A stretch of DNA of 64,000 bases from Mesorhizobium sp. (lineage in GTDB: Bacteria > Pseudomonadota > Alphaproteobacteria > Rhizobiales > Rhizobiaceae), in NCBI GenBank assembly GCA_004017535.1, contig SAJS01000025.1, positions 18,948 through 82,947 of the forward strand, given 5' to 3'. Below the pieces are notes generated by a model. That model did no database searches. It was given only the letters and a program-made list of their open reading frames with translations, and was not told the origin of the DNA. Position numbers and translations under genes: made by a program. This document shows positions 17,242 through 62,566 of the stretch, in pieces. Every line of letters begins with the position of its first letter. Position 1 is the stretch's first letter.

Positions 17242-17432
17242 CTCGGAACTTCGTTATCCCAGGGCGGAGCAGGAGCGAAGCTCCGTCGCGGAGACCCTAG
17301 GATCCATACCGTGAGGTCGAGGCGTTGCGGCGCTCCAGAATTCTGCTCTGCTGCGTTCTCCGACAAAGGTCACGGCATGGATCCTCGTGTCTGCGCCGTC
17401 GCTCCGTTCCTTGCTCCGCCCGTGGATGACGA
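17242..17432. repeat. Long palindromic intergenic repeat (GGCGGAGCA family)
   Basis: Ends carry inverted CAGGGCGGAGCAGGAGCGAA and TTGCTCCGCCC, with inner copies of ACCCTAGGATCCATACCG and CACGGCATGGATCC. Relatives lie at 27655-27855, 38530-38586 and 53555-53745. Confidence 0.65.
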
Positions 17433-49307: not shown

Positions 49308-49463
49308 CCCCCCTCTCTGTCCTGCCGGACATCTCCCCCTCAAGGGGGGATATTGGCGGTCTCGACGCCTCGCTTGTCCTGCAATGTTGACGGTTGGCGA
49401 AAGCCGACGTGACATCGATCTCGCCCCTCGTGGGGGAGATGGCCGGCAGGGCAGAGGGGGGTG
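49308..49463. repeat. Intergenic inverted repeat (GGCAGGGCAGAGGGGGG family)
   Basis: CCCCCTCTCTGTCCTGCCGG pairs with GGCCGGCAGGGCAGAGGGGG; inner stems use CATCTCCCCCTC and GGGGGAGATGG. No gene lies in 49268-49503. Confidence 0.7.
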
Positions 49464-53554: not shown

Positions 53555-53745
53555 CGTGGCTTCGTCATCCACGGGCGGAGCAAGGAGCGAAGCGACGCGC
53601 GTAGACCCGAGGATCCATTCCGTGACTTTCGAGCGCTGCAGCGGTGCAGAATTCTGCTCCGCTGCGCGCTCTGATCAGCGTAACGGCATGGATTCCAGGG
53701 TCTCCGCGACGCCGCTTCGCGGCTGCTCCGCCCAGGAATGACGAG
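53555..53745. repeat. Long palindromic intergenic repeat (GGCGGAGCA family)
   Basis: CGTCATCCACGGGCGGAGCA at the left and GCTCCGCCCAGGAATGACGA at the right are inverted; inner GACCCGAGGATCCATTCCGT pairs with ACGGCATGGATTCCAGGGTC. Within the 53406-53995 gap nothing else is seen except an AT-richer stretch at 53770-53920. Confidence 0.7.
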
Positions 53746-55740: not shown

Positions 55741-56112
55741 CTACTCCTCCAGGTCGATCTCCTCGGTCTGGCCGCCGCTGCAGGTATAGCAGCAATCCTC
55801 GCAGCTCTCCTGGTTGTTGGGGCCGACGCCCCAATAGGTGCTTTCGTCGCCGTCCACCCAGGCGCCGTAGCAGATCTTCTCGCCGTCGTTGCAGGAGATC
55901 GGCAATTGCTTGGTCTCGCCATCGTCGAGATAGAAATCCTTGCCGTTGCCCGGCCAGACATAGTCGCGGTCCTGGCTGTAGAGCTCGACGCGCATGGCGT
56001 TGGGATGGTTGTTCCTGATCTGGAAGGTGACGTCGCCTGCATGGGCGGCGGGCGCGATGAGGACGGCAAGCGAAAGCGCGACGGCGGCGCGGCGCGCGAA
56101 AGAGATGGACAT
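55741..56112 (-). CDS. Exported Cys-rich protein, paralogue A
   Basis: Protein of 123 aa from ATG 56112: signal peptide (AVALSLAVLIAPAAHA, cleavage before GDV) then VTFQIRNNHPNAMRVELYSQ, VWPGNGKDFYLDDGET, PISCNDGEKICYGAWVDGDE, GVGPNNQESCEDCCYTC. Six cysteines, four in CxxCCxxC. Closely matches paralogue B (56974-57321) in order and motifs. Probably a small periplasmic or secreted domain held by disulfides or metal. Family not identified. Confidence 0.75.
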   Translation of the reverse strand: MSISFARRAAVALSLAVLIAPAAHAGDVTFQIRNNHPNAMRVELYSQDRDYVWPGNGKDFYLDDGETKQLPISCNDGEKICYGAWVDGDESTYWGVGPNNQESCEDCCYTCSGGQTEEIDLEE

Positions 56113-56227
56113 GAGAACCCCCGAGATAGAATCGGCCCCCACGGCCGATGCGGGATGATGGCATGAGGCGCGGCGATGCCAAGGGGGTGGGGAGGAAAAT
56201 AGCTGGGTGAAGTGGCGCGACCTCCTC

Positions 56228-56372
56228 CTTCTCCCCTTGTGGGGTGAGAGGCGGTCCGCACAGCGGACGAAAAGCCAATTGCTTGGCTTTTCGAGCTTCG
56301 AACGCCCTGAGCCTGCGAAGGGCCGGGCAGAGGCTCGGCGCGCAGCGCCGAGACGGATGAGGGGTGCTCCAG
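56228..56372 (+). repeat. Left arm of the DUF559 inverted repeat
   Basis: Starts CTTCTCCCCTTGTGGGGTGA and ends GGATGAGGGGTGCTCCAG. Confidence 0.9.
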
Positions 56373-56394
56373 CTTGGCGAAACCGCCAACCTCA

Positions 56395-56766
56395 CTACCG
56401 CCAAGGCTGCAGACTTTGATCCCTAACATAAGCAATGATGGTATCGCACACCGCATCGAGCTCTTTCAGCACCTCATCGTTCCAGAACCGCAGCACGCGA
56501 AAGCCCCTCGCCTTCAATGCGGCGTCGCGTTCCTGGTCATGCCGCGATTCCGCATGCTGGCTGCCGTCGATTTCGACGATGAGCCTGGCCTCGGCACAGA
56601 CAAAGTCCGCCACGTACCTGCCCATCGGCACCTGCCGCTTGAACTTGATATTGTCGAGTCGCCGGCCGCGCAGTTCTTGCCACAGGCGATCTTCCGCCTC
56701 TGTCGGCTCACGGCGCATAGAACGGGCGAAATTCCGTTTGGCGGGGGTCACGGGTTGGTGCGGCAT
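56395..56766 (-). CDS. DUF559 endonuclease-fold protein (Vsr-like)
   Basis: Protein of 123 aa. It has the whole DUF559 pattern: RREPTEAEDRLWQELRGRRL, KFKRQVPMGRYVADFVC (D54), LIVEIDGSQHAES (E65, D67, H71), D..R and GFRVLRFWNDEVL. The fold is that of very-short-patch-repair and restriction-like nucleases, so it is a predicted DNA nuclease or nickase; activity unproven. It is the only gene in the inverted-repeat cassette, with 22 nt to the left arm and 54 nt to the right arm. Confidence 0.88.
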   Translation of the reverse strand: MPHQPVTPAKRNFARSMRREPTEAEDRLWQELRGRRLDNIKFKRQVPMGRYVADFVCAEARLIVEIDGSQHAESRHDQERDAALKARGFRVLRFWNDEVLKELDAVCDTIIAYVRDQSLQPWR

Positions 56767-56820
56767 GGTGCGAGATTAGCCGGCCTTCGTTATTGCTCAA
56801 ATATCCGGCGTTGCACTCCG

Positions 56821-56965
56821 CTGGAGCACCCCTCATCCGTCTCGGCGCTGCGCGCCGATCCTCTGCCCGGCCCTTCGCAGGCTCAGGGCGTTCGAAGCTC
56901 GAAAAGCCAAGCAATTGGCTTTTCGTCCGCTGTGCGGACCGCCTCTCACCCCACAAGGGGAGAAG
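56821..56965 (-). repeat. Right arm of the DUF559 inverted repeat
   Basis: Reverse complement of 56228-56372 with 144 of 145 identities; ends 8 nt before the stop of paralogue B. Confidence 0.9.
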
Positions 56966-56973
56966 GGGAAGAG

Positions 56974-57321
56974 CTACTCCGCCAAATCCACCGTCTCTGT
57001 CGAATGCTCGGTGCAGATGAAGCAGCAGGTGTCGCAGGGCTGATCGTTGTCGGGGCCGACGCCGGCGCTGACGGTGTCGTCGCCGTCCACCCAGGCGCCC
57101 CAGCAGATATGCTCGCCGGGTTCGCAGGAGATCGGCACGGACTTGCGTGCCTTCGGCCGGATGAGGAAGACCTTGTCGCCGCCCGGCCAGACTTTCTGGC
57201 TGTCGCGGCTGAACAGTTCCACCGCGACGCCGTCCGAGCGCTGGTTGCGCACGAAGACCGACATGTCGGCGGCGAAGGCCGGCGTGGTGAGGAGAAGCAA
57301 GGCGAGCAGAGCGCGAATCAT
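56974..57321 (-). CDS. Exported Cys-rich protein, paralogue B
   Basis: Protein of 115 aa from ATG 57321: signal peptide (MIRALLALLLLTTPAFAAD), then MSVFVRNQRSDGVAVELFSR, VWPGGDKVFL, VPISCEPGEHICWGAWVDGDD, GVGPDNDQPCDTCCFIC. Six cysteines aligned with paralogue A, including CxxCCxxC. The two genes are a tandem duplication on the same strand, now split by the DUF559 cassette. Confidence 0.75.
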   Translation of the reverse strand: MIRALLALLLLTTPAFAADMSVFVRNQRSDGVAVELFSRDSQKVWPGGDKVFLIRPKARKSVPISCEPGEHICWGAWVDGDDTVSAGVGPDNDQPCDTCCFICTEHSTETVDLAE

Positions 57322-57370
57322 GGCGAGGTCCCCGGGGGAGTAGAGCATGGGAGCGGACGCCGCGCGACCT

Positions 57371-57546
57371 CCCTTCCCCCCTTGTGGGGGAAGGTGGCTC
57401 GGCGCGTAGCGCCGAGACGGATGAGGGGTGCTCCAGCTTGGCAAGGACGTTCGCTACAAAATTGTGGATCGCCGACGCCTCACTCCGCTGGAACACCCCT
57501 CATCCGGCCGCTTCGCGGCCACCTTCCCCCACAAGGGGGGAAGGGA
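57371..57546. repeat. Intergenic inverted repeat (CTTCCCCC...GGATGAGGGG family)
   Basis: Arms CCCTTCCCCCCTTGTGGGGG and CCCCACAAGGGGGGAAGGGA are inverted around a 50-60 nt centre; both halves contain GGATGAGGGGTGCTCCAG or a close inverted copy. Confidence 0.75.
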
Positions 57547-62420: not shown

Positions 62421-62566
62421 CCTTCCCCCCTTGTGGGGGAAGGTGGATCGGCGCGTCAGCGCCGAGACGGATGAGGGGTATTCCAGCGGAGTGAGACGCT
62501 GGCTTTCCCTGGAGCACCCCTCATCCGGCCGCTGCGCGGCCACCTTCTCCCACAAGGGGAGAAGGA
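62421..62566. repeat. Intergenic inverted repeat (CTTCCCCC...GGATGAGGGG family)
   Basis: CCTTCCCCCCTTGTGGGGGA and CTCCCACAAGGGGAGAAGG are inverted; inner GAGACGGATGAGGGGTATTC and CACCCCTCATCCGGCCG match the DUF559 arms. Confidence 0.75.

What the first reader, a model, noticed from the sequence alone, without database searches (positions are those of the whole stretch)
56228..56965. Lone DUF559 nuclease gene bounded by near-perfect 145-bp inverted repeats
The arms match at 144 of 145 positions, have equal length, and enclose only a predicted Vsr/restriction-like nuclease gene; the cassette splits a tandem gene pair. The arm ends and inner stems match dispersed palindromes in this window that have no gene inside. 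This looks like an autonomous element with non-autonomous derivatives, by analogy with RAYT/REP or IS/MITE pairs, but with a DUF559 protein as the candidate mobility or repeat-maintenance enzyme. I know of no described element of this kind.
Basis: partly seen in the sequence, partly recalled or inferred. Interest (0 to 1): 0.78.

Follow-up and report, generated by a model that had tools for sequence, protein, structure and literature searches.

The report
DUF559 nuclease nested in triplex palindromes
A small Vsr-like nuclease gene sits inside a long DNA palindrome in a Mesorhizobium-type genome, and relatives of the gene in other bacteria often sit in or beside palindromes of the same triple-helix-forming type, which makes the nuclease a strong candidate for the unknown enzyme that spreads or maintains these repeats.

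Summary
In detail: arms 56228-56372 and 56821-56965 match at 144 of 145 positions around one DUF559 gene (56395-56766, minus). It is one case of a wide pattern. Inverted arms flank 80 of 116 DUF559 genes in the genus (2 of 3000 random intervals), 26 of 47 across the class, 52 of 81 in named loci (40 of 64 outside Mesorhizobium) and 13 of 28 in other classes of the phylum; ParE genes gave 0 of 29. Arm family tracks protein clade. Clade A gene presence goes with A-unit number (median 26 vs 5), not B-unit number; the B gene behaves alike. One orthologous site holds, in different genomes, nothing, a gene-free palindrome, or the cassette. In seven of eight clades the arms keep a hairpin plus a fitting purine third strand: the intrastrand-triplex motif of Holder et al., reported from over 260 genomes, with no mobility gene found around the E. 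coli copies. E. coli's ycjD (DUF559) lies 180 bp from one. The fold resembles homing endonuclease I-Bth0305I. This looks like REPIN-RAYT with an unrelated enzyme; binding, cutting and copying are inferred. Short GIY-YIG genes show a parallel link to other palindromes (17 of 43).

The parts
56222..56373 (+). Left arm of the inverted repeat: stem 1 (CCTTCTCCCC..), an extra segment of about 80 nt, stem 2 (TCGGCGC/GCGCCGA), tail GGATGAGGGGTG pointing to the gene
56395..56766 (-). DUF559 (PF04480) Vsr-like nuclease gene, 123 aa; E25, D54, E65, D67, H71 and D77 invariant in the 61-sequence alignment A2
   Evidence: AF2 model pLDDT 85, nearest solved folds 3hrl, then I-Bth0305I, with Vsr weaker
56820..56971 (-). 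Right arm (reverse complement of the left arm, 149 of 152)
57372..57544 (.). Gene-free palindrome of the same family; its loop keeps the cassette's 5' inner end (TTCCAGCGGAGTGAGGC) and 3' inner end (TTGCCAAGCTGGAG)
62439..62547 (.). Second pair of units of the family without a gene (tails inward)
55741..56142 (-). Gene Y, small-protein paralogue beside the cassette; marker for the orthologous site in relatives
56974..57444 (-). ORF holding gene X (paralogue of Y) on the other side of the cassette

Best explanation
The cassette is the enzyme-bearing member of a two-part palindromic repeat system that works like REPIN-RAYT but uses an unrelated enzyme. The repeat unit folds, in single-stranded DNA, into a hairpin (CCCTCTCCC..GGGAGAGGG) whose purine strand is covered by a downstream purine tail (GGGTGAGGG), an intrastrand triplex. 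Two units in inverted orientation make the palindrome. The DUF559 protein, a Vsr-like endonuclease, most likely recognises its cognate folded unit and nicks or cuts there, so that repair or replication copies the unit to new intergenic places (at the two sites examined here, just after a stop codon). Gene-free palindromes are served in trans; the gene itself is usually kept by vertical descent. SHOWN by sequence: the association, gene-repeat pairing, hairpin-tail fit, site polymorphism, purifying selection on the gene, conservation of the arms, nuclease fold. INFERRED: triplex formation by these arms, binding, cleavage, and that cleavage causes copying.
For: Flanking arms (score 40 or more): 80 of 116 genus genes vs 2 of 3000 random intervals; 23 of 26 clade-by-locus groups, covering 113 of the 116 genes, hold a flanked member; 26 of 47 class-wide, no null run there; 52 of 81 genes in 80 named loci vs 2 of 3000, of which 40 of 64 outside Mesorhizobium (with the genus split); 13 of 28 in other classes of the phylum, 11 of 20 genomes, vs 0 of 2000. 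ParE control 0 of 29. Two resident clades without flanking pairs still carry their own cognate arm within 450 bp: 21 of 23 (B) and 9 of 9 (D), random 20 and 3 of 609. Arm family tracks protein clade, read by eye on the tree. Counts: A gene/A units 26 vs 5, p=3.5e-6; B gene (flanked or resident)/B units 77 vs 11, p=2e-4; crosses p=0.91 and 0.31 (counts). Tail-inward A pairs, 122 places of six genomes: 24 at 32-74 bp, 3 at 459-460 that are all DUF559 cassettes, plus 654 and 2793. Site polymorphism. Five of 11 longer gene-free loops keep both cassette inner ends. Median dN/dS 0.04-0.13 in ten clades; arms better conserved than outer flanks in five of six clades. Third-strand run 8-10 vs about 5 shuffled in seven of eight clades. 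Fold of I-Bth0305I. No PF01797 (Y1) match in the own genome.
Against: No movement was seen; target-site duplications were not examined. 36 of 116 genus genes lack a flanking pair. Clades C, D, F, G and H showed no dispersed units away from the genes in 1.3 Mb with my patterns. Some genomes without the gene hold many units (A: G015 40, G033 26; B: G008 100, G034 81). The count comparison ignores phylogeny, gene presence rests on a listing that was cut, and three genomes (G002 for A, G015 and G017 for B) were assigned without the tree. Three of the five gene-free loops with both inner ends are the same orthologous place in different genomes. Arm homogenisation holds for clade A only. Clade F arms are no better conserved than their flanks. 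Clade D scores low in the triplex test (5.0 vs 4.1), and tails fit some other families' hairpins equally well. A within-E. coli count test could not be run.
Confidence: 0.58

Rival explanations
1. Host maintenance: the nuclease is a cellular enzyme that trims or resolves folded triplex/hairpin DNA or mismatches at these repeats (Vsr-like repair). It sits beside them because its expression or targeting uses them. Repeats spread by replication errors, not by the enzyme.
For: Purifying selection and mostly vertical inheritance. [quoted passage not shown] Holder et al. link the triplex motif to local instability (PMC4666352, abstract and passages).
Against: Does not by itself explain the gene-specific copy-number link or gene-free copies that keep the cassette's inner ends.
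Confidence: 0.21
2. Homing-type selfish gene: like EDxHD and GIY-YIG homing endonucleases, the gene invades the loop of existing palindromes by cutting gene-free copies and being copied in by recombination through the arms.
For: Nearest fold after a DUF559 structure is homing endonuclease I-Bth0305I. A second nuclease family with the same habit is GIY-YIG. One site is empty, gene-free or gene-bearing in different genomes. Cassette and some gene-free loops share inner ends.
Against: In the listed genomes there are 1-3 clade A genes beside up to 94 A units, and six of eight flanked clades stay at one or two loci, where homing would spread the gene.
Confidence: 0.14
3. Passenger or coincidence: short intergenic genes are simply surrounded by common palindromes.
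For: Units are numerous: up to 94 A and 193 B units per genome.
Against: ParE 0 of 29, random intervals 2 of 3000, clustered spacing, clade-specific arms, same motif outside Mesorhizobium: 39 of 40 arms with CTCYCC vs 7 percent background.
Confidence: 0.03
4. A different mobility enzyme, such as a RAYT or IS transposase, moves the palindromes, and DUF559 has an accessory role.
For: Movement by DUF559 is not shown.
Against: No PF01797 match in the own genome; Holder et al. report no mobility activities around the E. coli motifs (PMC4666352, passage). Other transposase families were not searched here.
Confidence: 0.04

Closest known systems
REPIN-RAYT / REPtron (TnpA-REP) systems
   Same: Palindromic repeats in inverted pairs, an associated enzyme gene co-evolving with its repeat, mostly vertical inheritance, more repeats in genomes that hold the enzyme (PMC8049555 passages; PMC8266576 abstract and outline); RAYT genes flanked by their repeats (PMC3733652 passages)
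   Different: Enzyme is a DUF559 Vsr-fold nuclease, not a HuH/Y1 transposase. Repeat is hairpin plus purine third strand; in the arms listed I see no GTAG at the hairpin foot.
Intrastrand triplex motifs TM_ECO (Holder et al. 2015, PMC4666352; also called PIT elements, a name I recall)
   Same: Same sequence logic: CCCTCTCCC-loop-GGGAGAGGG-NNN-GGGTGAGGG, intergenic, five times as inverted pairs in MG1655 (passages). Their copy no. 9 (1351204-1351239) is the one 180 bp from ycjD, the E. coli K-12 DUF559 gene.
   Different: In the passages I read no enzyme is linked to them; many Mesorhizobium arms carry an extra stem between hairpin and tail.
Vsr-like (EDxHD) homing endonuclease I-Bth0305I
   Same: Predicted fold, E=2.2e-5, TM-score 0.70 by target length
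   Different: Not in an intron or intein; associated with palindromes; homing not shown.
IS / MITE pairs
   Same: Gene-bearing element and gene-free copies with the same arms, some with the same inner ends
   Different: No known transposase inside; target-site duplications not examined.
CGTC-tagged REPs (Di Nocera et al. 2013, PMC3733652)
   Same: Palindromes that apparently lack a dedicated transposase (passages)
   Different: Different sequence; palindromes of this look are here linked to short GIY-YIG genes instead.

Membership tests
REPIN-RAYT (REPtron) | HuH/Y1 tyrosine transposase as the repeat-associated enzyme | tested here: not met
   Gene is DUF559; no PF01797 match in own genome at E<=0.001
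REPIN-RAYT (REPtron) | GTAG tag at the foot of the hairpin | tested here: not met
   By eye on the clade C-H arms listed; GTAG appears only in second-stem loops of H arms, not at the foot
REPIN-RAYT (REPtron) | Enzyme gene flanked by the repeat; dispersed gene-free units | tested here: met
   for A and B; E also has dispersed units; not seen for C, D, F, G, H
REPIN-RAYT (REPtron) | More repeats where the cognate enzyme is present | tested here: met
   for A and B, without phylogenetic correction
REPIN-RAYT (REPtron) | Enzyme cleaves cognate folded repeat | not testable with these tools
   needs biochemistry
Intrastrand triplex motif (TM/PIT) | Hairpin with purine 3' strand plus downstream matching purine third strand | tested here: met
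   median run 8-10 vs about 5 shuffled in seven of eight clades; clade D 5.0 vs 4.1
Intrastrand triplex motif (TM/PIT) | Triplex formed in vitro | not testable with these tools
   reported for the E. coli motif in PMC4666352 (abstract, section headings)
EDxHD (Vsr-like) homing endonucleases | Vsr-like catalytic fold | tested here: met
EDxHD (Vsr-like) homing endonucleases | E-D-x-H-D catalytic residues | tested here: inconclusive
   E25, D54, H71, D77 invariant, but the sequence alignment to 3r3p covers only the C-terminal half and puts W opposite H71
EDxHD (Vsr-like) homing endonucleases | Homing into empty alleles | not testable with these tools
   site polymorphism only
Vsr mismatch repair | TIGR00632 vsr family membership | tested here: not met
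   17.6 bits, cut-off 97.85
IS element | Recognised transposase inside terminal inverted repeats | tested here: not met
   the annotated family inside is DUF559
IS element / MITE | Target-site duplication | not tested
   -
Anti-phage defence system | Match to a defence model over most of the protein | tested here: not met
   PADLOC: window protein one match, DpdF E 4.5e-4 over residues 53-99; L003 four weak matches to parts of larger models, best 2.1e-5

The most novel reading that the evidence does not exclude
Small lone nucleases are the missing enzymes of 'orphan' bacterial palindromes. DUF559 proteins copy or maintain the intrastrand-triplex repeats found in hundreds of genomes including E. 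coli (ycjD), and short GIY-YIG proteins do the same for CGTC-type REPs. This would be a class of repeat-spreading systems independent of HuH and DDE transposases, with recognition of a folded triplex or hairpin rather than a plain duplex site.
Probability: 0.45. Interest if true: 0.93.

Novelty: new variant of a known kind. Interest (0 to 1): 0.86.

Why it matters
Triplex-forming motifs occur in over 260 bacterial genomes, and their describers found no mobility activities around the E. coli copies (PMC4666352, abstract and passage); [quoted passage not shown] A candidate enzyme for each, with the first one present in E. coli K-12, makes the question of how these repeats arise and persist directly testable. 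It would also give a function to DUF559, a family Pfam lists as of unknown function, and suggests that Vsr-like and GIY-YIG nucleases drive repeat families outside introns and inteins.

Tried and rejected
Chance or common-repeat background: rejected by random intervals and ParE. GIY-YIG was meant as a second control and turned out flanked (11 of 25; 17 of 43 short-ORF ones, of which 10 of the 17 have GTCAT/ATGAC in the arm, against 9 percent of background 50-mers), so it is reported as a lead. Trivial inheritance as the reason for arm-protein congruence: partly accepted, since clades C-H are each one or two loci; A and B have 6 and 10 locus groups by the looser flank test, 10 and 11 by the stricter one. 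Arm homogenisation as a general feature: rejected, only clade A shows it. Known RNA families: only a tRNA matched in the seven sources searched. RAYT-type transposase in the own genome: none. Clean empty site at E. coli ycjD: not found; both ycjD-lacking strains that I opened hold other genes beside fabI. Matches of the profile to enterotoxin B chains at E 0.27-0.85 are chance and were not followed.

Literature (listings only unless stated): DUF559 with 'inverted repeat' 0 papers, with 'palindromic' 2 unrelated, DUF559 alone 14, REP-associated/transposase/nuclease terms 9, a RIME search swamped by other meanings, REP with Vsr 0, REP with GIY-YIG 0, REPIN/RAYT/nuclease 17, EDxHD, CCCTCTCCC with palindrom 9 (which gave Holder et al.). 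The library holds only open-licence papers, so 'not in print' is limited to these searches. Passages read: PMC12907096, PMC3733652, PMC3943268, PMC8049555, PMC4666352 (also its outline); PMC8266576 abstract and outline only.

Rows left out: one search dropped 7 fragments, 5 duplicates and 3 short-flank genes, and weaker genus matches (listing itself cut) were not all fetched. One search dropped 2 short-flank genes and tested part's list. One search tested 28 genes, part's other-class matches, and set aside 2 fragments. One search dropped 5 truncated GIY-YIG loci and 1 ParE locus. One search added 20 short-ORF GIY-YIG loci of those listed. One search was given 122 of the A places listed; the listing shows two further tail-inward pairs, at 71 and 82 bp (G019, G020), that I did not give it. 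One search used 23 of 30 loci (the 7 without gene X dropped) and a crude motif test for DUF559. Counts are of single units, not palindromes. On rechecking, 3 of the 5 gene-free loops with both inner ends proved to be one orthologous place; for this I lowered the main confidence from 0.60 to 0.58.

Full report
CHECK. The arms are real: 144 of 145 positions match between 56228-56372 and 56821-56965, around a single 123-aa DUF559 gene (PF04480, E 2.9e-41). The window lies in a 6.86-Mb genome with three other DUF559 genes. Two of these also lie between inverted arms, of different sequence (L003, L004), and the third (L002) has a palindrome just upstream. Named relatives of the gene and contig are Mesorhizobium, from which I infer the genus.

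SCALE. I scored inverted arms by local alignment of the 450 bp left of the DUF559 domain with the reverse complement of the 450 bp right of it. In 41 genomes of the genus (40 hold DUF559), 80 of the 116 genes that I tested reach the threshold of 40, against 2 of 3000 random intervals from the same loci. Many of these are orthologues: 113 of the 116 fall into ten clades and 26 clade-by-locus groups by flanking DNA, and 23 of the 26 groups hold a flanked member. Of the resident genes without a flanking pair, 21 of 23 in one clade have a B-type arm and 9 of 9 in the other have a D-type arm within 450 bp; random intervals have these in 20 and 3 of 609. Beyond the genus: 26 of 47 genes across the class (no null run), 52 of 81 in 80 named loci from several phyla, some of them metagenome bins (null 2 of 3000), of which 40 of 64 lie outside Mesorhizobium, and 13 of 28 genes, in 11 of 20 genomes, in other classes of the phylum (null 0 of 2000). 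ParE toxin genes in the genus gave 0 of 29.

ARMS. The arm families in the genus share one plan: a hairpin with a pyrimidine-rich 5' strand and purine-rich 3' strand, a spacer that may be a second stem, and a purine tail pointing toward the gene. Outside Mesorhizobium 39 of 40 arms hold CTCYCC (background 7 percent) and 33 of 40 a purine tail of this kind (4 percent). The tail can lie antiparallel on the hairpin's purine strand by G.G, A.A and T.A contacts. The median unbroken run is 8-10 against about 5 for shuffled tails in seven of eight clades (clade D 5.0 against 4.1). In the cross-table each hairpin family scores best with its own tail or within 0.5 of the best, but some foreign tails fit as well (E on A, D on B, C on G, F on H). 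This is the sequence logic of the intrastrand-triplex motif of Holder et al. 2015 (PMC4666352; abstract, outline and passages with Table 1), reported from more than 260 genomes. The authors say they never found mobility activities around the E. coli sites. In E. coli K-12 MG1655 the DUF559 gene ycjD (1351407-1351760) has an exact motif core 180 bp away, starting at 1351204, which is copy no. 9 of their Table 1.

GENE AND REPEAT GO TOGETHER. Arm family follows protein clade (read by eye). Genomes with a clade A gene (20) hold a median of 26 A units against 5 without (21; p=3.5e-6), with no difference in B units (p=0.91). Genomes with a B gene, flanked or resident (30), hold 77 B units against 11 (11; p=2e-4), with no difference in A units (p=0.31). 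Relatedness was not corrected for, gene presence comes from a cut listing, and there are exceptions (A: G015, G033; B: G008, G034). In 122 places of six genomes, tail-inward A pairs lie 32-34 (8), 49 (1), 66-74 (15), 459-460 (3), 654 (1) or 2793 bp (1) apart; the three at 459-460 are DUF559 cassettes and the last two run across elements. In 1.3 Mb around the genes, 58 of 64 inverted pairs with loops of 300-500 bp enclose DUF559 (loci were chosen for the gene, so this is not an unbiased rate).

SITES. Between genes X and Y, 23 genomes (the window's included) show: 9 with a DUF559 cassette, 6 with gene-free palindromes of three families, 4 with no element, and 4 partial or unclassified (families judged by eye). 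The site after Y varies in the same way. Of 11 gene-free A palindromes with loops of 61-81 nt, 5 keep both of the cassette's inner ends; three of these five are one orthologous place, so 3 independent places. That is the relation of a MITE to its parent, or of an empty site to an invaded one.

SELECTION AND FOLD. Median dN/dS is 0.04-0.13 in all ten clades, with median dS about 1 or more. At orthologous loci arms are better conserved than the 60 bp outside them in five of six clades (for example C 0.82/0.84 against 0.37/0.48; F is the exception). The AF2 model (pLDDT 85) matches the Neisseria structure 3hrl, then the catalytic domain of homing endonuclease I-Bth0305I (E 2.2e-5), and more weakly Vsr (E 0.016-0.02).

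MECHANISM. Shown: nuclease fold, gene-repeat pairing, hairpin-tail fit, site polymorphism. Inferred: the protein recognises its folded arm, cuts there, and this seeds copying of the palindrome. The nearest functional analogue is REPIN-RAYT (PMC8049555 passages, PMC8266576 abstract), where the enzyme is also vertical and repeats are more numerous when it is present. It is not a member: no HuH/Y1 transposase is involved and none is found in this genome. The main rivals are a host repair/maintenance role and homing into existing palindromes.

EXTENSION. Short GIY-YIG genes, chosen as a control, are themselves flanked in 17 of 43 cases (null 0 of 2000); 10 of the 17 arms carry GTCAT/ATGAC and look like CGTC-type palindromes (GTCATCCCCGCG..CGCGGGGATCC). 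That label is mine, from the description in Di Nocera et al. [quoted passage not shown] This is a lead with fewer tests behind it.

Noticed in passing
L312, L318, L323, L304, L308, L364, L367, L369 (GIY-YIG loci): Short lone GIY-YIG genes are flanked by inverted arms in 17 of 43 cases, 10 of them with GTCAT as in CGTC-type palindromes; a possible second nuclease-repeat pair.
   Followed up: partly
window 17252-17431 and 53563-53743: Two pairs of CGTC-type units in the window; the same genome holds flanked GIY-YIG genes elsewhere (L312, L367).
   Followed up: no
window 49309-49460: A gene-free B-type pair in tails-outward order (minus unit then plus unit); this order is frequent among the B places listed, while the B cassettes are tails-inward. 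Unexplained.
   Followed up: no
window 56222-56373 and 56820-56971; L207: The window's arms hold the same extra segment of about 80 nt in both arms; a gene-free palindrome at the same site in another genome (L207) holds a similar segment in one arm only.
   Followed up: partly
contigs C25, C26, C28, C5, C19, C2 of the own genome: Six contigs begin within about 200 bases of a repeat unit, so the repeats probably break the assembly.
   Followed up: no
L422 (E. coli K-12 MG1655): ycjD has a triplex motif downstream and a second, imperfect one at its 3' end (by eye); ycjD is found in 3365 of 5426 E. coli genomes.
   Followed up: partly
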